A stretch of DNA of 20,660 nucleotides from a virus. The stretch is taken from the IMG/VR virus record IMGVR_UViG_3300032322_000905, positions 1 through 20,660 of that record; one strand, given 5' to 3'. Each line of letters starts with the position of its first letter. Position 1 is the stretch's first letter. Shown here piece by piece: positions 2,406 through 12,773 of the stretch. The position numbers and the translations under genes were made by a program. The notes beneath the pieces are model-generated. The model saw only the letters and a list, made by a program, of their open reading frames with translations, did no database searches and was not told where the DNA came from.

Positions 2406-2426
2406 GAAAATTATTAAATTTATTTT

Positions 2427-2584
2427 TGTTTTACACTAAGGGTAATTTTCTGGGCTGAATGGTTTTATTTTCCACTAAGGGTTTTGTTTTACACTACGGT
2501 CTTTTCCATTCTGTTTTACACTAACCCTATTTTTCCGCCATGTTTTACACTATGGGTTAAACCGCCATGTTTTACACTATGGGT
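2427..2584. repeat. Iteron-like array of TGTTTTACACTA(W)GGGT
   Basis: Six same-direction copies of a core TTTTACACTA followed by AGGGT-like bases start near 2427, 2468 (variant TTTTCCACTAAGGGT), 2485, 2512, 2541 and 2568. The last four are 27-29 bases apart. The final two are part of an exact 23-base repeat (2535-2557 and 2562-2584, CCGCCA plus the core plus TGGGT). The array lies just upstream of the leftward promoter at 2374-2405. Directly repeated sites of this kind are typical of replication-initiator iterons or of cooperative operators. The same core occurs at 1-171. Confidence 0.7.
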
Positions 2585-2591
2585 ATGGGTA

Positions 2592-3523: not shown

Positions 3524-4240
3524 TTAATGCTCTAAAATTTGAATGTGCTTTTTTCCTTTGCGTTCACCACTACATAGGCCGCATTTTTCACAAGTACTTT
3601 TAAATCCCGCTTCCTTACTTGCGGGACATACTACAGCGTTTTTTACTAATTCTGGATCGCTAGTAGCAAGAAATCCGCGGAATCCCATTTTTTCTGCAAT
3701 ACCTAATTGCTTTTCATTATGGATCGAAGCCATAAAATAGGACGCAAATTCTGGTTTCTTTGCCCATTGGTGAGTATATCCTGTGTGGCTTTTGCTTACT
3801 TTGACCATGTCACCTACCAAATTAACAGGAATCAAAGTTGGTTCGCCATATGTCCCGAAACGGATGTACCTACCTTGCGAAATCTCTAAAATCCTTTTTT
3901 CTAACAAGTGGATCGCTGGTATATACTGCAAGGTCGTAAACTCTCTCACTATAGATTTAAGCATGGAAACAAATCCGCTAAACTGCATGTATTTGTGGGT
4001 GTAGCATTTTAAATAGGCCCTAAATGGGCAATCAAAACAAACGGAATCCGCAAGATCAAAAAACTTTTTAGGGTCTATCTTTGTCCCTTGCTTCATGCTC
4101 TCAGCTACATAATTGAACTGCAAATCTGAGAAACTATAGACTTGCAATATCTTTTCTTTACCGCTTGAAATTTTAGCGTTTGTGGTTACACCTAGCTTAA
4201 AAACTAGTATTGCGTCCTTTACTTTTGTCGTTACTCTCAT
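3524..4240 (-). CDS. GP88-like Cys-rich phage protein
   Basis: A 238-residue protein resembling the phage 'gene product 88' family and relatives with unknown function. Visible hallmarks: RYIRFGTYGEPTLIPVN (residues 124-140), TGYTHQW (153-159), FMASIHN (169-175) and a C-terminal VCPASKEAGFKSTCEKCGLC (204-223). Cysteines at 68, 71 and 79 and at 205, 217, 220 and 223 form two groups, which could bind zinc or an iron-sulphur cluster. The leader taaacacgaaaaaac before the ATG at 4240 is A-rich. It is the largest gene of the second leftward operon. A metal-dependent or nucleic-acid role is inferred only from the cysteines. Confidence 0.7.
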   Translation of the reverse strand: MRVTTKVKDAILVFKLGVTTNAKISSGKEKILQVYSFSDLQFNYVAESMKQGTKIDPKKFFDLADSVCFDCPFRAYLKCYTHKYMQFSGFVSMLKSIVREFTTLQYIPAIHLLEKRILEISQGRYIRFGTYGEPTLIPVNLVGDMVKVSKSHTGYTHQWAKKPEFASYFMASIHNEKQLGIAEKMGFRGFLATSDPELVKNAVVCPASKEAGFKSTCEKCGLCSGERKGKKHIQILEH

Positions 4241-5182: not shown

Positions 5183-5304
5183 TGAGTGTACGGGAACCGG
5201 TTGGAAAGTGGAATTCCCCAATTAACTAATTTACCCATGGGGGGGTATGTTTCTGAGTGTACAGGAATCAAACGGAAAATGGAAATACCCAATTAATTAA
5301 TTTA
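5183..5304. repeat. Two ungapped 51-bp imperfect repeats between terS and terL
   Basis: Copies at 5183-5233 and 5254-5304 start TGAGTGTAC and end CCCAATTAA(C/T)TAATTTA. 41 of 51 positions agree with no gaps, and the start-to-start distance is 71. The substitutions are not biased to any codon position, so this is not coding. Both contain AGTGTAC, related to the octamer at 1-171. Their place between the terminase genes suggests a packaging (cos/pac) recognition site or a regulator of terL. Confidence 0.7.
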
Positions 5305-5307
5305 GCT

Positions 5308-6543
5308 ATGATTCAACTTTTAGACGATTACAAGCCATTATTCTACGAGCATCCTGACACGAGGTACTATTTGGTTACGGGTGGTAGAGGAAGTGGTAAG
5401 TCTTGGACATTGGCTTTGTTTCTGCTGAACTTGACCTATGAGAAGGGTCATGTGATTCTTTTCACTAGATACACCTTGGTGAGTGCGTTTATTTCGATTA
5501 TTCCAGAGTTCTTGGATAAGATTGAGATTATGGGCAAGATGAATGACTTTGATGTGACTCAGAGTGAGATTATAAATAAGTTGACTGGGTCTAAGATTCT
5601 GTTCCGTGGGATTAAGACTAGTAGTGGGGTAAATACTGCGAACTTAAAGTCGATTGCTGGATTGTCGACATGGGTAGTGGATGAGGCAGAGGAATTGACA
5701 GACCCTGAGATATTTGATAAGGTTGACTTGTCGATACGAGCGAAGGATGTTTACAACAGGGTTATCTTGGTAATGAACCCATCGTACAAGAGTCATTGGA
5801 TTTATCAGGACTTTGTAAAGAATAAAAGAAAGGATACGACTTATATTCATACGACATACTTGGATAATAAGATTAACCTGAGTGAGTCGTTTGTGCAGGC
5901 AGCTGAGAAGACTAAGCGAGAGAATAGGGCGAGATATGACCACTTGTTCATGGGTACTTGGTTGGATGATGCGGAAGGAATGTTGTGGAACAGGGCGATA
6001 CTAGGGAAAGCGAGGGTTGATGAAGCTCCGAACTTGAAAAGGATTGTGGTTGCACTTGATCCTGCGGTGACTGCGAACATGAATAGTGATGAGACGGGTA
6101 TTATAGTGGTTGGTAAGTGTAAGGAAGGATTTGCGTATGTGTTGGAGGATTTGAGTGGGAAGTACTCTCCGAATCATTGGGCGAAGATTGCAAACGATGC
6201 TGCGTTTCGGTGGAATGCAGATTGTATTGTGGCAGAGAAGAACCAGGGTGGAGACATGGTAGAGGCTGTGTTGAAGGCACAGGGGACTACTACGAGGATT
6301 AAGCTAGTGTCGGCTACGAAGGGAAAGTATGTGAGAGCGGAGCCTGTGTATTCGTTGTATGAGAAGGGTCAGGTGTACCATGTGGGGAGCTTTCCGCTCT
6401 TGGAGAGTCAGATGGTTACCTTCGACCCTGATAAGGGGAAGTCGCCTGATAGAGTGGATGCGTTGGTATGGGGATTGACTGAGTTGATGGTCAAGAACCG
6501 AAGTCAAGGGTTCGTGTTGATAAAAGGAAAATTATTTAGGTAA
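5308..6543 (+). CDS. terL: Terminase large subunit (ATPase-nuclease)
   Basis: The 411-residue DNA-packaging motor. N-terminal ATPase: Walker A GGRGSGKS at residues 25-32, Walker B WVVDEAE at 122-128 (D125, E126). C-terminal RNase H-like nuclease: D251 in VALDPAV, E310 in VAEKNQGG, D384 in PDRVDALVW, matching the Terminase_6 family. It docks on the portal and cuts and pumps DNA into proheads. The ATG at 5308 is chosen because the upstream in-frame extension (from 5257) is made entirely of the 51-base repeat, which is not coding-like. terS precedes it and portal follows after 32 bases. All key catalytic residues are present. Confidence 0.95.
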   Translation: MIQLLDDYKPLFYEHPDTRYYLVTGGRGSGKSWTLALFLLNLTYEKGHVILFTRYTLVSAFISIIPEFLDKIEIMGKMNDFDVTQSEIINKLTGSKILFRGIKTSSGVNTANLKSIAGLSTWVVDEAEELTDPEIFDKVDLSIRAKDVYNRVILVMNPSYKSHWIYQDFVKNKRKDTTYIHTTYLDNKINLSESFVQAAEKTKRENRARYDHLFMGTWLDDAEGMLWNRAILGKARVDEAPNLKRIVVALDPAVTANMNSDETGIIVVGKCKEGFAYVLEDLSGKYSPNHWAKIANDAAFRWNADCIVAEKNQGGDMVEAVLKAQGTTTRIKLVSATKGKYVRAEPVYSLYEKGQVYHVGSFPLLESQMVTFDPDKGKSPDRVDALVWGLTELMVKNRSQGFVLIKGKLFR

Positions 6544-6575: not shown

Positions 6576-7991
6576 ATGAATCTACTGAAAGCGTTTAGAA
6601 CTAAGGATGCAGGTTTGCCTGTGGCTTTGCAATGGCAGTATATTAAGGGAGTATGGATGCCTTATGATGCAAAGGATGGTATTTACATTGATAAAGCGTA
6701 TAAGGCTATCCCTGTTGTTCAGTCAGTAGTTTCTAAGATAGTAGAGAAGAGTGCGGATGCTGCACCGATGTTGTATAAGATTAAGGACAAGCGGTTTGCA
6801 GAGAAGTACTATGCGAAGAGAAAGTATTTGAAGAGTAAGGAGAATGCTACGGAGTTGGCTAAGTTGAGGGTGAAAGCGTTTGAGTCGATTGAATCTCATC
6901 CGTTCTTGCAGTTGATGGATATGCCCAACCCGACTAGCACGGGAAGACAGTTAAGAGAAGAAGTTGCAGGATATCTGTTGATTACGGGGAATGCGATTGT
7001 ATATGCGAGTGTACCTGGTGCAGGAGTGAGAGCCAAGCAGCCGATTGAGTTGTGGAGTGTTCCGAGTCCGACTGTGAAGCCTGTTATGTCAGGGGAAAGA
7101 ACTCAGCCGTTGGCAGGATATGCGATTACATATAACTTTGAGAATGTTATCCCTACTCAGCAGATAGCTCACTTCAAGTACTTCAACCCTGTGTCTGAGT
7201 GGCAAGGATATGAGAGTACATTTTGGGGATTAAGTCCGTTGAGGTCAAGTGTTAGTATTATATCTCAGAAGAGATATGCTGATGTGGCTCAAGGTTCGTT
7301 GTTTGCAAACATGGGGCCGAGTGGTATTGTGAGTGGTAATGCACGACACAGCGATCAGGCTGAGTTGACTGCTGAGCAGGCGGTTGCGATTAACGATTCG
7401 TTTAGACAGAACCACATGGGTGCCCACAACGCTGGAGACATTGTTGTGACTCCGAGTGACCTAAAGTGGGTGCAGATAGGCTTGAGTCCTGTGGACATGG
7501 GTATCTTGGACTTCAACGCTGACTTGGAAAGACAGATTGCTAACATCTATGGATATCCATCTCAGTTGTTGACTCCGCAGGGAACATTGGCTAATAGTGA
7601 GACTGGTGATACGAGAGTTATCACTAACTGCGTGTTGCCGTTGTTAAGAAAGATGGATGATGTGTGGACTAAGATGGCTAGACAATGGTATGGAGACAAC
7701 AGCTTGGTAGTAATGTCTGATACCGATGTTTATCCTGAATTGGAAGGCGATAAGAAGGAGTTGGTGCATTGGATGCGTCAAGCGATGGTGTTCAGCCAGG
7801 ATGAGATCCGTGAGGCACTAGGATATGGAACGATTGTAGATGAGACACAGGTGTTGGTTCCTACGAACTATATGCCGTTGGCTGACATGAGAAGTGGAGA
7901 CTTAGAGATGGAGACTGTGCCGAGTGGTAGAAATGTACCGAGAGAAGACGAAGACATCGAAGATGATGATACAGACCAAGATTTTGACTAA
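6576..7991 (+). CDS. Portal protein (HK97 family)
   Basis: This 471-residue protein matches the HK97-like portal family: an N-terminal helical region, then HPFLQLMDMPNP, GYLLITGNAIVYA and IELWSVPSPTVKPV, the central STFWGLSPLRSS segment, and SQLLTPQGTLANSETGDTR before the long C-terminal helix. The tail is acidic (EDEDIEDDDTDQDFD). Twelve copies form the ring at one prohead vertex, which is the DNA channel, terminase dock and later the tail attachment. The usual portal-to-protease adjacency is broken here by an inserted methyltransferase/glycosyltransferase cassette. A 7/8 -7 box, TACTTTTA (6550-6557), lies 18 bases before the ATG. Confidence 0.93.
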   Translation: MNLLKAFRTKDAGLPVALQWQYIKGVWMPYDAKDGIYIDKAYKAIPVVQSVVSKIVEKSADAAPMLYKIKDKRFAEKYYAKRKYLKSKENATELAKLRVKAFESIESHPFLQLMDMPNPTSTGRQLREEVAGYLLITGNAIVYASVPGAGVRAKQPIELWSVPSPTVKPVMSGERTQPLAGYAITYNFENVIPTQQIAHFKYFNPVSEWQGYESTFWGLSPLRSSVSIISQKRYADVAQGSLFANMGPSGIVSGNARHSDQAELTAEQAVAINDSFRQNHMGAHNAGDIVVTPSDLKWVQIGLSPVDMGILDFNADLERQIANIYGYPSQLLTPQGTLANSETGDTRVITNCVLPLLRKMDDVWTKMARQWYGDNSLVVMSDTDVYPELEGDKKELVHWMRQAMVFSQDEIREALGYGTIVDETQVLVPTNYMPLADMRSGDLEMETVPSGRNVPREDEDIEDDDTDQDFD

Positions 7992-8157
7992 GAACTTTGT
8001 AGCTGTTGATGGGATAATAACTGTCAAGGCTCAGAGGTTGGGTGAGGAGTATACCTGCTGGTGCAAGGCCGAGGATTATACATTCGAATTCAAGGAAGGA
8101 ATGAGTACCAAGGATATTATAGAGCAGACTATAAAGCTGCTTTCTGTAATGCCATAA
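7963..8157 (+). CDS. Small hypothetical protein overlapping portal end (64 aa)
   Basis: The protein begins MMIQTKILTKNFVAVDG and contains KAQRLGEEYTCWCKAEDYTF, with two Cys around a Trp (CWC), then a helix (STKDIIEQTIKLLSVMP). It overlaps the portal gene by 29 bases in another frame. Paired ATGs at 7963 and 7966 are both possible starts; a GTG at 7924 is less likely. It sits at the head of the sugar/methyl cassette, 15 bases before the methyltransferase. No family is recognised. It is beta-hairpin-like in the middle, perhaps a small accessory subunit. Confidence 0.55.
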   Translation: MMIQTKILTKNFVAVDGIITVKAQRLGEEYTCWCKAEDYTFEFKEGMSTKDIIEQTIKLLSVMP

Positions 8158-8172
8158 CTAAATATAAACACG

Positions 8173-8703
8173 ATGATATCAGAAGAAGAATTCTTGAAGG
8201 CAGAGATTGAATCTCTGAACCTGACGATGAACAATGAGCTATTTGTAGGCTTGGCTAAGAGTGTAGCTAACTACTGCAAGAAGTTTGATCCTAGTAGTGT
8301 AATTGACTACGGATGTGGCACAGGAGTGTATAGTGAGGTGATGCGACAGGAAGGATTTAACATCATGGCACTAGATGTGTTCAAGAGCCACAGAGACTAC
8401 TGCAAGGAGCAGTATAGTGAGTTGAAGGTGATTGCTAGACCGAAGGCAGCAGAGATGATGTTGTTAATCGAGGTTGCTGAACACATGACTGACCAAGAGA
8501 TTAAGAATGCAATTGATGTTATAGAGCCTAAGGTGATATTGTTTAGCTCTACTCCACATACTAATTCTAACGATGCAGAGTGGGGACATATTAACATTAA
8601 GCAGGAGGAGGAATGGATTGCATTCTGGAAGGTTCTAGGGTATAAGGTATTAGAGAAACCATCAACTCCTACGACATGGACTCTGATGCTAGAAAAAATT
8701 TAA
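8173..8703 (+). CDS. SAM-dependent class I methyltransferase
   Basis: A 176-residue Rossmann-fold methyltransferase. Motif I is VIDYGCGTGVYSEVM (residues 43-57) for SAM binding, D68 (MALDVF) at the end of strand 2 should bind the ribose, and LLIEVAEHM (97-105) is the strand-4 motif, like the EVxEH signature of UbiE/COQ5-type and sugar/small-molecule methyltransferases. No DNA-methylase DPPY or PC motif is present, so a nucleic-acid target is not favoured. It overlaps the first glycosyltransferase-like gene by 28 bases, so sugar or lipid methylation is the likely role. The leader taaatataaacacg is A-rich. Confidence 0.8.
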   Translation: MISEEEFLKAEIESLNLTMNNELFVGLAKSVANYCKKFDPSSVIDYGCGTGVYSEVMRQEGFNIMALDVFKSHRDYCKEQYSELKVIARPKAAEMMLLIEVAEHMTDQEIKNAIDVIEPKVILFSSTPHTNSNDAEWGHINIKQEEEWIAFWKVLGYKVLEKPSTPTTWTLMLEKI

Positions 8704-9326
8704 TTTACTTTATTTACTACGATGGCACATTAAACCATTTCCATGTATTGAACTTAAAGTTCTTGCAGGAGTATTGGAATGTGTTTGATGGTCAAAGGAT
8801 AGTTAAGATAGCCGTAAAGGGTGACTATTCTTTGGCACCTATTGTGGATATGCTGCCGAAAGACTGCGAGTATCGAGTAGTGCAGAACGATGCTAAGTTT
8901 GGCGAATGTACTCACTTCTTAGACTCGTTGATAGAAATTGATGGTGGCATGACATTCTATGCACATTGCAAGGGAGTTACTCGACCGCAATGGTCTGGAT
9001 TAAACATTTGGATTACACATCTGTATCGAAAGAACTTGACTACACCTCCTGTATTGGGAGATAAGCTATTTGCAGGTGTTTGTGCTAAGTTATTGCCGTG
9101 TCCTCCGTATGTTCCCTATCCGTTTCACTATTCGGGATCATTCTATTGGTTTGCTACCGATAAAGTTAAGGCAAGACTAAAAAATATGAAGTTGACCCTA
9201 GACAAGTACTTGACTGAGCAGTTCCCAGGTATTATGGCAAATAAAGATGAATGTATATTCGGATTTGGAAGCTCAGATGTAAATCATAACTTTTACGAGG
9301 AGAGAACTTGGAGATATTTAAGATGA
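8676..9326 (+). CDS. Glycosyltransferase-like protein (HxKG family)
   Basis: A 216-residue protein. The N-terminal part reads as an alpha/beta strand order (LIYFIYYDGTLNHFHVLNL). The diagnostic stretch is MTFYAHCKGVTRP (residues 92-104), close to the FYAHTKGVT motif of small bacterial glycosyltransferase-like proteins, followed by YPFHYSGSFYWF (148-159). These families are associated with surface polysaccharide synthesis. No clear DxD metal motif was found, so catalysis is uncertain. It is coupled at both ends: a 28-base overlap with the methyltransferase and an ATGA overlap with the next gene. Substrate unknown. Confidence 0.6.
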   Translation: MDSDARKNLIYFIYYDGTLNHFHVLNLKFLQEYWNVFDGQRIVKIAVKGDYSLAPIVDMLPKDCEYRVVQNDAKFGECTHFLDSLIEIDGGMTFYAHCKGVTRPQWSGLNIWITHLYRKNLTTPPVLGDKLFAGVCAKLLPCPPYVPYPFHYSGSFYWFATDKVKARLKNMKLTLDKYLTEQFPGIMANKDECIFGFGSSDVNHNFYEERTWRYLR

Positions 9327-10513
9327 AAGTAATTTATTCGGTCTTGTTCGGAGACTACGATGATGTCAGTCCTGCCCCTAAGTTTGAGGGGTGGGACTTT
9401 GTCTTATTTACCGATAATGCAGAGCTAAAGGTTGATGGATGGAAGATACGAGTGGTGAATGGCATTACAGATAGACAGAAGGAGGCTAGAAAGTACAAGC
9501 TTCTATCACACTTGTATCTAAGTGAATACGATTTGGTCTGTTATGCCGATGCGAATATTTCGTTTGTGCATGAGCCACCTAGTTTTCCGATATGGTTTAA
9601 GACTCGTGCCCATGTAGATGTCTACACTAGAGCGAAGGAGTTGGTTAATGAGGGCAAGGTAAATGAGGATCAGGTTAAGAGGCAGTTTAGGTATTACTTA
9701 GAAAGTAGGTACAAGGACAAGGCAGGATTACTAGATACTAACTTCTTTGTTCGGTCAAATCGAGATGCATTGCAGAATATCTTGATGGATGGTGTCTGGA
9801 AAATTGTGCAGGATTTTACTAGCAGAGATGAGTTGGCATTTCCTTATGTTATTCATTGGAGAAATATAAGTCCTGAAAATATCAAGCCACACAATGTTAT
9901 GGCAACCTTTGTTACGATAAATAAGCACAAGGGAAAGGTTGAAGTTAAGAAGAGTGTTCAGGTACACCACATAACACCTGGTAGGTCAGACAAGAACATT
10001 GGAAAGGCTATAAACACAATAATCGAGGGTCTTCCTGACGATGATTGGATATGTCTACGAGACATTGATACGCTGCCGATGTATCACGAGAAGATATATC
10101 AGCAATGCGAGGAGATAGCACAGAGAGGTGACTTTGACTTGGTTGGTTGCATGACTAATCGTTTGGGGTTGCACTATCAGCTTGTAGGAGGACAAAAATC
10201 AGATGACTCTGACATTATGAATCACAGAAAGATTGCAGTTGACCTGTATAACGAGCATGGAAGTAATGTGATGTTCTTTAACCAAGTTATTGGTGGGCTG
10301 TTTATGCTGTTTAGTAAGAAGACTTGGGAACTTGTCGGAGGGTTTCCTGAAGGAGGCATTCAGATTAATGGACATTTCTTTGACTACCATTTCTGTAAGC
10401 AGATAATGCGACATAGACTACGAATTGGTATCGCTAAGGGTATATACTTGTTCCATTACTATCGATTTGAGAGTGGTCAAGATACTAGAAGAAATATTAG
10501 TCATCTTCTATGA
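9323..10513 (+). CDS. Two-domain glycosyltransferase (DUF616-like + GT-A)
   Basis: A 396-residue protein with two domains. Residues 1-200 resemble the DUF616/TOD1-type glycosyltransferase: VLFGDYDDVSPAP (8-20), FVLFTDN (26-32), then RKYKLLSH..YDLVCYADANI (56-79). Residues 210-396 resemble a compact GT-A fold: DKNIGKAIN (223-231), WICLRDIDTLPM with the metal-binding D247-x-D249, and GGFPEGG..FFDYHFC (339-358), like a galactosyltransferase C-terminal motif. It begins at ATG 9323, overlapping the preceding stop as ATGA; a TTG at 9308 is less likely. Such fusions can add two sugars in sequence. The target, whether virion protein or host glycan, is not shown. Confidence 0.72.
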   Translation: MKVIYSVLFGDYDDVSPAPKFEGWDFVLFTDNAELKVDGWKIRVVNGITDRQKEARKYKLLSHLYLSEYDLVCYADANISFVHEPPSFPIWFKTRAHVDVYTRAKELVNEGKVNEDQVKRQFRYYLESRYKDKAGLLDTNFFVRSNRDALQNILMDGVWKIVQDFTSRDELAFPYVIHWRNISPENIKPHNVMATFVTINKHKGKVEVKKSVQVHHITPGRSDKNIGKAINTIIEGLPDDDWICLRDIDTLPMYHEKIYQQCEEIAQRGDFDLVGCMTNRLGLHYQLVGGQKSDDSDIMNHRKIAVDLYNEHGSNVMFFNQVIGGLFMLFSKKTWELVGGFPEGGIQINGHFFDYHFCKQIMRHRLRIGIAKGIYLFHYYRFESGQDTRRNISHLL

Positions 10514-10514
10514 G

Positions 10515-10546
10515 TTTGTATCTTTAATAGTTTTTTTCAATCTTTG
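10515..10546 (+). promoter_or_regulatory. Promoter for protease and capsid genes
   Basis: TTTG (10515-10518), 20 bases, AATCTTTG (10539-10546), a 7/8 match to TAnnTTTG with ideal spacing. The box ends three bases before ATG 10550, so the transcript would begin at or near the start codon. Confidence 0.6.
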
Positions 10547-10549
10547 TGT

Positions 10550-11614
10550 ATGAATGAGGATTTAGATTTCGAATCTATCGAACAAAAAAGCTATTCAGAT
10601 TATCCTGAGGCAGTTAGAAATAATGCTAAAAGGGTTCTTAAATATGTTGAGGAGAACGGTTGGGGGCCATGTGGCACAGATGTTGGAAAGCAAAGAGCAA
10701 ATCAGCTTGCAAAAGGCGAGCCTTTGTCAGTAGATACAATCAAGAGGATGTATAGCTATCTAAGTAGACATGAGGTTGATTTACAATCTTCTAGCTCTTA
10801 CGAGGATGGCTGCGGTCTATTGATGTACGATGCATGGGGAGGAAAAGCTGCACTATCGTGGAGCAGGAGTAAACTGAGAGAATTAGGAGAAATAAAAGAA
10901 CAGAGCAATATGGGTTTTCTAACTAAAGGTATTAACCAAGGATTTCAAGATGCCGACATGAAGCAAGGTGTTGTTTCAGGTTATTTTGCAATGTTTGGGA
11001 ACAAGGACTTGGATGGTGATGTCATCGAGAGAGGAGCATTTGCTAAGACTATCCAGGAGCGTGGGCCTAATGGTAAGAAGCTTATCAAGTATTTGCTAGA
11101 TCATGACTCTAAGAAATCTGTTGCTCTTATTACCAACCTAGAGGAGGACATGAAGGGTTTGAGATATGAGGCTAAGATTGGTACTCATAGCTTGGGTGTT
11201 GACTTCATGAAAATGGTAGAGTCAGGACTTATTAACCAGCATAGCTTTGGATTCTCTGTACCTAAAGATAAGCAGTACTTTGATGGCAATAAAAAAGCTA
11301 ATGTTATCAAGGAAGTTATCATGTACGAAGGATCAGCAGTACAGTTCTTGGGAGCGAATCCTGAGACTACATTTATCGACTTGAAGTCCGAATCAGATGC
11401 TTTTGAATACCTTGACAGACTTGAGAAGTTTGTGAAGACTTCTGACGCAACTGATGAGACACTTGTCAAACTAGAAGAAAGACTTAAATCACTTTACGAA
11501 GTTCTAAAGCCGAAAGAAATCACTTTAGAAAAGGTTAAAGCCGATTTGGATAGTAATAAATTAATTGAATCACTTAAATCTACATTTAGAAATCATGGCA
11601 GAATTGCAAATTAA
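10550..11614 (+). CDS. HK97-family prohead protease with N-terminal extra domain
   Basis: A 354-residue protein. Residues about 15-117 are a separate domain (VGKQRANQLAKGEPLSVDTI..YLSRHEVDL..AWGGKAALSWSRSK), which I recall fused to or near other phage proteases; its function is unknown. Residues 138-270 form the serine protease: SGYFAMFGNKDLDGDVIERGAF, YLLDHD with the likely catalytic His185, NQHSFGFSV with the likely Ser232, and YEGSAVQFLGANPET. It cleaves capsid delta-domains and itself during maturation. The C-terminal tail is charged and helical, like a scaffold. ATG at 10550 is used; an upstream TTG (10544) lies within the -7 box. It overlaps the capsid start by 20 bases. Confidence 0.9.
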   Translation: MNEDLDFESIEQKSYSDYPEAVRNNAKRVLKYVEENGWGPCGTDVGKQRANQLAKGEPLSVDTIKRMYSYLSRHEVDLQSSSSYEDGCGLLMYDAWGGKAALSWSRSKLRELGEIKEQSNMGFLTKGINQGFQDADMKQGVVSGYFAMFGNKDLDGDVIERGAFAKTIQERGPNGKKLIKYLLDHDSKKSVALITNLEEDMKGLRYEAKIGTHSLGVDFMKMVESGLINQHSFGFSVPKDKQYFDGNKKANVIKEVIMYEGSAVQFLGANPETTFIDLKSESDAFEYLDRLEKFVKTSDATDETLVKLEERLKSLYEVLKPKEITLEKVKADLDSNKLIESLKSTFRNHGRIAN

Positions 11615-12773
11615 AGAGGTTCAGGATTTTCTAGCCGAAGAGCTACAAACCCTGAAGAAAAACTTCTCTACTGAAAGAGAAAAAGATGTTGTTGGATTTG
11701 ACACCAAAGTTAAAGACGCAATGGACAAGCTTACTGCTGATATGCAGTCTAAGCACGCTGACATCCAGAAGGAAATGGATAAGGCTCTTGCTGACATCAC
11801 CGAGAAATCTGCTCCTAAAGTTGAGCGTAAGAACTTCGGTTGGTCTTTGCATGAGACTTTGAAGTCTAACCACGCTGAGATGGTTAAGAATGTAAAATCT
11901 GGTAAGGGCATGGAAATGACCATGAAGGATTTCAACTATTCTGACTTCACAGGTTATGAGCCTTTCGTAACTGACTTCAGAGACCCAATCTTGGTTAAGT
12001 ATGAGTCTTTCCATTACAGAAATGTCCTTCCTGGAGGAACAATGTCTGGTGAATTCGTTAAGTATCCAAAAGAAAACGCTACCGTAGGTGGAGCTAACAC
12101 TTGGGCATACGGATCAGGTCAAGGTGGAGCTAACGTAGCTAAGCCTGAAATCGAGCCTAAGTTCACTACTTACCAAGCAGATGCTGAGTGGATTGCAGGT
12201 CTTATCAAAGGTGTTCCTGTATCTATGATCGAAGATTTGGCTTGGATGACTTCATTCTTGCAGAACAAAGGTCGTGCTGAATTGTTGAAGAAGGAAGATA
12301 CCTTCATCCAAGGTTTGCTTCTTGATGCTGCTAACTCTGAGAACTACAACGGTTCTAAGACTGTAAGCATTGAAATCTTGATTGATGCTGCTTTGCGTCA
12401 ATTGAAGAACAACCTTCACACTCCAACTGGAATCGTATTGTCTAACCAAGATTATGTAAACATCTTGTTGGGTAAGGCTTCTGGTTCTGGTGAGTATGAC
12501 TTCCCAGGTGTTGTGACTGTTAATCCTTTGACTGGACAACTTAATGTAGTTGGTATCCCTGTATTCTCTAACTCTTACCTTTCTCAAGGAACTGGTATCG
12601 TTGGTGATTGGAATCAAGCTCAGTTGTTGACTCGTCAGGCTCCTCGTATCAGATTCTTCGATCAGAACTCTGACGATGCTGAGAAGAATGTTATCTTGGT
12701 TCGTGTTGAGGAGAGAGTTGCACTTCCTGTGTTCTATGACAATGCGTTCATTAAGGTAACTTTGGCTTCCTAA
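11595..12773 (+). CDS. Major capsid protein (HK97 fold)
   Basis: A 392-residue protein beginning MAELQIKEVQDFLAEELQTL. The first 100 or so residues are helical and charged and resemble a delta (scaffold) domain, with a probable cleavage zone near KSAPKVERKNFG. The rest fits the HK97 capsid fold, with an E-loop region (FHYRNVLPGGTMSGEF) and a C-terminal A-domain (NVILVRVEERVALPVFYDNA). Third codon positions favour TTC, AAC, AAG and GTT/GCT codons unlike the AT-rich flanks, typical of a very highly expressed gene. It directly follows the protease that would trim it and is closed by a strong terminator. Confidence 0.93.
   Translation: MAELQIKEVQDFLAEELQTLKKNFSTEREKDVVGFDTKVKDAMDKLTADMQSKHADIQKEMDKALADITEKSAPKVERKNFGWSLHETLKSNHAEMVKNVKSGKGMEMTMKDFNYSDFTGYEPFVTDFRDPILVKYESFHYRNVLPGGTMSGEFVKYPKENATVGGANTWAYGSGQGGANVAKPEIEPKFTTYQADAEWIAGLIKGVPVSMIEDLAWMTSFLQNKGRAELLKKEDTFIQGLLLDAANSENYNGSKTVSIEILIDAALRQLKNNLHTPTGIVLSNQDYVNILLGKASGSGEYDFPGVVTVNPLTGQLNVVGIPVFSNSYLSQGTGIVGDWNQAQLLTRQAPRIRFFDQNSDDAEKNVILVRVEERVALPVFYDNAFIKVTLAS

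What the first reader, a model, noticed from the sequence alone, without database searches (positions are those of the whole stretch)
8173..10513. Methyltransferase plus two glycosyltransferase-like genes inside the head module
Portal and prohead protease are usually neighbours. Here a SAM methyltransferase, an HxKG-type protein and a two-domain glycosyltransferase are inserted and coupled to each other by overlaps, with a tiny CWC protein in front. Expression among late virion genes suggests capsid, tail or host-surface glycosylation, or modification of sugars linked to DNA, as a phage trait.
Basis: partly seen in the sequence, partly recalled or inferred. Interest (0 to 1): 0.65.

Follow-up and report, generated by a model that had tools for sequence, protein, structure and literature searches.

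The report
Swappable sugar genes in phage head
Freshwater phages, probably of Bacteroidota, carry next to their capsid genes a small set of genes that most likely builds a methylated sugar coat on the virus particle; in close relatives the set is swapped for other sugar-building genes, as bacteria swap their surface antigens.

Summary
Between portal (6576-7991) and prohead protease (10544-11614) lie a small ORF, a class I SAM methyltransferase (8173-8703), an unnamed 216-aa "HKG" protein (8676-9326) and a two-domain glycosyltransferase (9323-10513: DUF616/TOD1_MUCI70-like plus a DxD GT-A domain). All are under purifying selection. HKG is predicted to have a GT-A/nucleotidyltransferase fold, matches nothing in Pfam, PHROGs or NCBIfam, and has no hit in 50,697 phage records.

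All 30 relatives read from portal to protease carry the block. In a sister group with a near-constant capsid protein (>=89%), MT-HKG plus the GT C-domain sits instead between capsid and connector genes. That slot is never empty (46 of 46), but MT-HKG alternates with two GT2 enzymes (with or without another methyltransferase) or a DUF616 domain, while the C-terminal GT stays. A capsid-gene tree needs at least 6 cassette changes. Cultured Cellulophaga phages and two Bacteroidota prophages carry analogous islands; mycobacteriophage Corndog has an unrelated set in the same slot.

Best reading: a virion-glycan cassette, probably head-directed, with exchangeable partners. DNA glycosylation is disfavoured; host-surface modification remains possible. 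A few relatives place these genes elsewhere. New variant of a known kind.

The parts
6576..7991 (+). portal protein, left border of the slot
   Evidence: PF04860 E 1.7e-43
7963..8157 (+). small conserved ORF with a CWC motif; start codon uncertain
   Evidence: kept in the window's lineage only; no family
8173..8703 (+). class I SAM-dependent methyltransferase, small-molecule/O-methyltransferase type (Methyltransf_23), no DNA-methylase catalytic motif
   Evidence: PF13489 45.1 bits, E 1.2e-11; motif I DYGCGTG and EVAEHM conserved in 14 relatives; UbiG-like sub-cut-off hit
8676..9326 (+). HKG protein: uncharacterised putative glycosyltransferase with a predicted GT-A/nucleotidyltransferase fold; invariant H97-C98-K99-G100 and YSGSFYW in place of a DxD
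   Evidence: A4 alignment of 35; AlphaFold pLDDT 85.7, pTM 0.87; Foldseek to IspD/KdsB/GlmU/ArnC/GtrB/GlcAT, E from 3.6e-5; no Pfam/PHROG/NCBIfam/phage hit
9323..9952 (+). N-terminal DUF616 (TOD1_MUCI70)-like glycosyltransferase domain; the fastest-changing part of the cassette
   Evidence: PF04765 21.6 bits, 29.2 and 31.8 in homologues; Foldseek of the full model to GT6 alpha-1,3-galactosyltransferases, E 5e-6
9953..10513 (+). C-terminal DxD GT-A glycosyltransferase domain (GTc), the constant element of all cassettes; DxD codons 10061-10069
   Evidence: phrog_26101 E 1.3e-54 over the whole protein, phrog_14179 E 1.6e-42; D249/D251 invariant; stand-alone in other lineages
10544..11614 (+). prohead protease, right border of the slot
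   Evidence: PF04586 E 1.4e-20
11565..12773 (+). major capsid protein; candidate target of the glycan (inferred)
   Evidence: PF05065 E 3.2e-11

Best explanation
The genes at 8173-10513 form a phage-encoded glycan-building cassette made together with the head proteins. Using the host's nucleotide sugars, the constant DxD glycosyltransferase (GTc), its fused DUF616-like domain and HKG most likely assemble a short glycan, and the methyltransferase probably O-methylates one of its sugars. The most likely acceptor is a virion protein made from the same operon, first of all the capsid. The constant GTc may perform the step common to all cassettes, while the partner module (MT-HKG, GT2a-GT2b, or DUF616) sets the sugar type and is swapped between otherwise near-identical phages, giving particles with different surface sugars. 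Shown by sequence: the genes, their domains, purifying selection, tight linkage, placement, and repeated exchange of the partner module. Inferred: the enzymatic activity of HKG, the sugar identity, the order of steps, the acceptor and the benefit.
For: Order portal-CWC-MT-HKG-GT-protease in 30 of 30 complete relatives. Sister lineage: MCP-[cassette]-connector, filled in 46 of 46 and GTc in 46 of 46: 26 MT-HKG-GTc, 13 MTs-GT2a-GT2b-GTc, 6 GT2a-GT2b-GTc, 1 MTs-DUF616/GTc. L208 against L213: protease-MCP 89% nt identical, then MT+HKG is replaced by two GT2 genes, then GTc onward 82%; capsid proteins are 97% identical between cassette types; at least 6 type changes on the capsid-gene tree. The replacing enzymes are recognisable GT2s (PF00535) and methyltransferases, which argues that HKG does a comparable job. 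Invariant DxD in GTc; GT-A-type fold for HKG. MT+GT islands between portal and protease also occur in Cellulophaga phi12:1, a Sphingobacterium prophage and a Chitinophaga prophage; L154 has two further methyltransferases (one RMNT_CmcI-like), a GT2 and a PLOD-type GT there. Published precedent: Corndog gp35-38 (O-methyltransferase plus glycosyltransferases) lie between portal and protease, were found in infected cells but not in virions, and were proposed to modify the capsid (PMC4351075); capsid-linked glycans are reported for related mycobacteriophages (cited in PMC11256854, and PMC12619734).
Against: No biochemical or mass-spectrometric evidence exists for any of these phages. In lineage D (L094/L095) MT-HKG lies between primase and helicase genes, 3 kb from GT. 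In coliphage phAPEC8 the GTc homologue lies with three other glycosyltransferases beside the endolysin and a primase/helicase. HKG lacks a DxD motif, and its fold also matches nucleotidyltransferases. The GT model is of modest quality (pLDDT 67.6). A phage protein could equally act on the cell surface from a late operon.
Confidence: 0.62

Rival explanations
1. The cassette modifies the host's surface polysaccharide late in infection (receptor masking, superinfection exclusion, or keeping progeny from sticking to debris), and the methylated sugars are on the cell.
For: DUF616 domains occur as stand-alone genes in Bacteroidota chromosomes, in at least one case (L138) beside a GT2 and membrane-protein genes typical of polysaccharide loci. 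Phage glycosyltransferases acting on LPS are a known class and were proposed for phi18:1 (PMC11946311). Exchangeable sugar genes fit variable host O-antigens.
Against: No polyprenyl-phosphate glycosyltransferase, flippase or membrane protein in the window's cassette, unlike gtrABC systems. Not at a prophage end but in the head operon of phages with no integrase seen. The slot is always filled.
Confidence: 0.2
2. The enzymes glycosylate and methylate phage DNA to escape restriction.
For: Phage DNA glycosyltransferases are well known; lineage D has MT-HKG among replication genes; some relatives' partner GTs touch the TET-associated GT model below its cut-off; one full relative has a C5-cytosine methyltransferase by its sequence motifs.
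Against: No thymidylate-synthase/hydroxymethylase-type gene in 18 relatives, with nine control genomes positive. TET/JBP also absent, but that control was silent. MT has no DNA-methylase motif. The genes are in the head module, not with DNA metabolism, in most lineages.
Confidence: 0.1
3. The methyltransferase methylates capsid protein side chains and only the GTs make a glycan, so the block is two head-modifying functions side by side.
For: In phi18:1 capsid lysine 44 is fully dimethylated at infection start and at 45 min, and gp40, the head-module 'DNA methylase', is detected in infected cells (PMC13288928).
Against: The window's MT belongs to another methyltransferase family than phi18:1 gp40. 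That paper ascribes the methylation to host enzymes. The six-contig GT2a-GT2b-GTc cassette type has no MT, so MT is dispensable.
Confidence: 0.08

Closest known systems
Cluster O mycobacteriophages (Corndog gp35-gp38)
   Same: an O-methyltransferase and glycosyltransferases between portal and capsid protease; made in infected cells but not found in virions; proposed to modify the capsid (PMC4351075)
   Different: no sequence relationship found (window MT and HKG have no match in the phage collection); no HKG, DUF616 or GTc reported; no exchange of modules described there
Cellulophaga phages phi12:1, phi17:1, phi18:1 (Helsingorvirus), gp39/gp40 (phi18:1 gp40/gp41)
   Same: homologous two-domain GT (33% over 99%) overlapping an upstream methyltransferase gene, between portal and protease
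   Different: methyltransferase of another family (Methyltransf_24), no HKG, a MuF-like gene and small genes also in the slot; function discussed as unknown (PMC11946311)
PHROG 26101 and 14179 (phage 'glycosyltransferase')
   Same: full-length and C-domain homologues, including phAPEC8-like coliphages
   Different: those are annotations without tested function; the coliphage copy lies outside the head module
Glycan-decorated mycobacteriophage capsids (Che8 and relatives)
   Same: phage-encoded glycosyltransferases linked to glycans on virion proteins (cited in PMC11256854 and PMC12619734)
   Different: in Maravista, a close relative, the GT genes lie near the genome end, not in the head module
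gtr serotype-conversion cassettes (from general knowledge)
   Same: constant plus variable glycosyltransferase genes giving exchangeable sugar types
   Different: those are membrane enzymes acting on host O-antigen via a lipid carrier; none of those parts is here

Membership tests
Class I SAM methyltransferase (Methyltransf_23) | profile score above the curated cut-off and a glycine-rich motif I | tested here: met
   45.1 bits against 27; DYGCGTG conserved
DNA methyltransferase | (D/N/S)PP(Y/F/W) or PCQ catalytic motif | tested here: not met
   neither motif in the 176-aa sequence nor conserved in alignment A3
DUF616 / TOD1_MUCI70 (PF04765) | profile score above the curated cut-off | tested here: met
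   21.6 against 21.4 in the window (marginal); 29.2 in phi12:1, 22.5 in L095, 31.8 in the Sphingobacterium prophage
GT-A glycosyltransferase with DxD (C-terminal domain) | invariant metal-binding DxD | tested here: met
   D249-I-D251 invariant in 27 and again in 12 diverse sequences
GT-A glycosyltransferase with DxD (HKG protein) | invariant metal-binding DxD | tested here: not met
   no invariant DxD among 35 sequences; HCKG at the corresponding strand end
GT-A / nucleotidyltransferase superfamily fold (HKG protein) | fold similarity to solved members | tested here: met
   Foldseek E 3.6e-5 and probability 1.00, but TM only 0.4-0.48; does not tell GT from nucleotidyltransferase
Phage virion-glycosylation island (Corndog type) | methyltransferase and glycosyltransferases between portal and capsid protease | tested here: met
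   window and 30 relatives
Phage virion-glycosylation island (Corndog type) | sequence homology to the Corndog genes | tested here: inconclusive
   no MT or HKG match among 50,697 phage records, but the Corndog accessions tried were not held
Phage virion-glycosylation island (Corndog type) | covalent glycan on virion proteins | not testable with these tools
   needs mass spectrometry
T-even-type DNA glycosylation | enzyme that makes a hydroxymethylated base as sugar acceptor | tested here: not met
   PF00303 absent from 18 relatives, nine control genomes positive; records may be incomplete
TET-dependent DNA glycosylation | TET/JBP dioxygenase | tested here: inconclusive
   PF12851 absent from 18 relatives, but no control genome rang

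The most novel reading that the evidence does not exclude
A serotype-like system of phage particles: a constant protein-directed glycosyltransferase, kept next to the capsid genes, works with exchangeable partner modules (MT-HKG, GT2 pairs, DUF616), so that phages with nearly identical capsids carry chemically different sugar coats and switch type by recombination. HKG would be the founding member of a new glycosyltransferase family without DxD.
Probability: 0.4. Interest if true: 0.82.

Novelty: new variant of a known kind. Interest (0 to 1): 0.62.

Why it matters
Virion glycosylation is regarded as rare in phages and is worked out mainly in mycobacteriophages. If these cassettes decorate the head, it is widespread in Bacteroidota phages of fresh and sea water, and comes in exchangeable types on a constant capsid, which implies selection for variable particle surfaces (host lectins, surface polysaccharides, grazers, or mucus and particle binding). 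It also gives function candidates for an unannotated protein family (HKG) and for the unexplained glycosyltransferase of the cultured model phage phi18:1, where it can be tested directly.

Tried and rejected
Promoter/terminator scan of the window: promoter-like sites no more than chance. Rfam and tRNA scans: nothing. HKG: no PDB sequence hit better than E 0.6, no relative in 84,980 genomes by pattern scan and none in 395 genomes of one phylum by profile (no positive control). GT: no PDB sequence hit; structure model of modest quality. PADLOC: only a weak MT-domain hit (E 7e-4) to the methyltransferase-like part of a defence protein, taken as shared SAM fold. TET/JBP search gave no information because the control was silent. 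Considered 'unrelated moron genes': rejected because order, overlaps and partner swapping are conserved. Considered 'always in the head module': rejected because of lineage D and phAPEC8. Corndog records could not be fetched, so homology to its genes was tested only through the collection-wide searches. A short probe query was typed by guess, not taken from any record, and is not used as evidence.

Full report
WHAT IS THERE. The window is a 20,660-bp virus fragment. Its late operon runs TerL 5257-6543, portal 6576-7991, small ORF to 8157, methyltransferase 8173-8703, HKG protein 8676-9326, two-domain GT 9323-10513, prohead protease 10544-11614, capsid 11565-12773, then connector and tail genes. 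MT and HKG overlap by 28 nt and HKG and GT by an ATGA, so translation is probably coupled. dN/dS is 0.04-0.26 for all cassette genes. The DUF616-like half of GT changes fastest (53-55% identity in distant relatives, against 82% for its C-terminal half and 91-94% for the capsid).

WHAT THE PROTEINS ARE. MT is a class I SAM methyltransferase of the small-molecule/O-methyltransferase type (PF13489; weak UbiG and PDB hits) without a DNA-methylase motif. GT is a DUF616/TOD1_MUCI70-like domain fused to a GT-A domain with an invariant DxD; its model resembles GT6 alpha-1,3-galactosyltransferases (modest model). HKG has no family in Pfam, PHROGs or NCBIfam and no relative in 50,697 phage records. Its alignment of 35 relatives gave a confident model that matches the GT-A/nucleotidyltransferase superfamily. 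It lacks DxD, so I do not file it as a DxD GT; its replacement by GT2 enzymes (below) suggests it works like one.

RELATIVES OF THE WINDOW. Every contig of the window's own lineage that reads from portal to protease has CWC-MT-HKG-GT (30 of 30; truncated contigs agree), with full-length GT identity from 98% down to about 64%. The block is fixed in this lineage.

THE SAME GENES IN ANOTHER SLOT. A profile search with HKG found a sister lineage in which MT-HKG plus a stand-alone C-terminal GT (GTc) lies between capsid and head-tail connector genes. I then took 80 contigs sharing that lineage's capsid protein (>=89% identity). The capsid-connector slot could be read whole in 46 and was never empty: 26 MT-HKG-GTc, 13 MTs-GT2a-GT2b-GTc, 6 GT2a-GT2b-GTc, 1 MTs with a DUF616-type GT; GTc was present in all 46. 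GT2a and GT2b are recognisable family-2 glycosyltransferases, and MTs is a Methyltransf_24-like protein. L208 and L213 are 89% identical in DNA through protease and capsid up to the start of the cassette; MT+HKG (1.2 kb) is then replaced by GT2a+GT2b (2.0 kb), and homology resumes at GTc at 82%. Capsid proteins are up to 97.6% identical between cassette types. A tree of 67 capsid genes needs at least 6 changes of partner module, with 4 forced by strongly supported branches for the HKG and GT2 labels each; recombination within the capsid gene could inflate this somewhat. So the partner module is exchanged and GTc stays.

BEYOND THE LINEAGE. In the Cellulophaga phages phi12:1, phi17:1 and phi18:1 the order is portal-MuF-x-x-[methyltransferase-DUF616/GTc]-...-protease-capsid; uncultured relatives L359 and L360 keep portal-MuF-methyltransferase-GT, and L359 reads on through protease and capsid. 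A Sphingobacterium prophage has portal-[MT-DUF616/GTc]-protease-capsid, and a Chitinophaga eiseniae prophage has portal-[MT-GT2-x-GTc]-MuF-protease-capsid. L154 has GTc with a 322-aa gene of no family, a GT2, two methyltransferases (one RMNT_CmcI-like) and a PLOD-type GT between portal and MuF. Of 24 GTc contigs with 3 kb on both sides, 18 have head or connector genes within 3.5 kb on both sides and 4 on one side. One of the two exceptions, L158, carries a GT2-GTc fusion between a tape-measure-like gene and a ClpP-like/coat region unlike the others. Named relatives point to Bacteroidota hosts; the host of the window itself was not shown.

WHAT SPEAKS AGAINST A SIMPLE HEAD RULE. In L094/L095 MT-HKG sits between a primase-like and a helicase gene and the DUF616/GTc gene is 3.3 kb downstream. 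In phAPEC8-like coliphages GTc lies with three other GTs between endolysin and primase/helicase. The linkage to head genes is therefore strong but not absolute.

MECHANISM AND RIVALS. The best reading is a virion-glycan cassette, by position, by co-expression logic and by precedent. Corndog carries an O-methyltransferase and glycosyltransferases between portal and protease; they were seen in infected cells and not in virions, and its authors proposed methyl and glycan modification of the capsid (PMC4351075). Glycans on capsid and tail-tube proteins of mycobacteriophages are cited in PMC12619734 and PMC11256854. Host-surface modification remains possible, as suggested among other options for phi18:1 (PMC11946311). 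DNA glycosylation is disfavoured: no hydroxymethylase-type gene in 18 relatives with working controls; the TET/JBP search is uninformative. A separate role of the methyltransferase on capsid lysines is conceivable: phi18:1 capsid is methylated and its head-module methyltransferase gp40 is made in infected cells (PMC13288928), but the window's MT is of another family.

NOVELTY. The kind (methyltransferase and glycosyltransferases in the portal-protease slot, presumed to decorate the capsid) is known from mycobacteriophages. New here are the HKG family, the constant-plus-exchangeable design in an always-filled slot, and its spread in Bacteroidota phages. I found no paper describing this in the library I could search, which does not hold most subscription journals.

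Noticed in passing
L213:6829-7002 and 128 matches in held loci (some loci are the same contig): A 58-aa protein with six conserved cysteines (MCKPQRCKLKxTC...CExYFKKNCKPCGEI) sits just upstream of the cassette in the sister lineage, whatever the cassette type, right after a terminator-like hairpin behind the capsid gene. Function unknown.
   Followed up: partly
L154:10931-11590: A PLOD-type glycosyltransferase domain (PF25342, E 2.9e-43; in animals it glycosylates collagen hydroxylysine) in a phage head-module glycan island. Cellulophaga phi12:1 has an annotated collagen-repeat tail fibre, so collagen-like virion proteins may be targets in some phages.
   Followed up: partly
window 2424-2591: Five imperfect direct copies of about 27 nt with the core GTTTTACACTA in the gap between two minus-strand genes; possibly a replication or regulatory element.
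   Followed up: partly
L068:15590-16348 (relative G003, minus strand): A phage gene for a protein that reads as a PAS sensor domain with C-terminal membrane segments, near peptidase/lysis-type genes; judged by eye, unusual for a 37-kb phage.
   Followed up: no
L068:8892-9695 (relative G003): A gene that by eye resembles the PAPS-reductase/adenosine-nucleotide hydrolase family, next to a C5-cytosine methyltransferase-like gene; possible DNA-modification pair, not tested.
   Followed up: no
window 10544-10880: The prohead protease carries an extra N-terminal domain (about residues 16-111, PHROG 2859) shared with the sister lineage although portal and capsid there are far diverged.
   Followed up: no
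window 3524-4240 (minus strand): Gene of unknown function with cysteine clusters (PHROG 2554, E 2.2e-28; weak DUF7227).
   Followed up: no
PMC13288928 against L065: The paper says phi18:1 encodes no methyltransferases, yet its own table lists two annotated DNA methylases (gp01, gp40), one of them in the head module; candidate enzymes for the fully dimethylated capsid lysine 44 may have been overlooked.
   Followed up: partly
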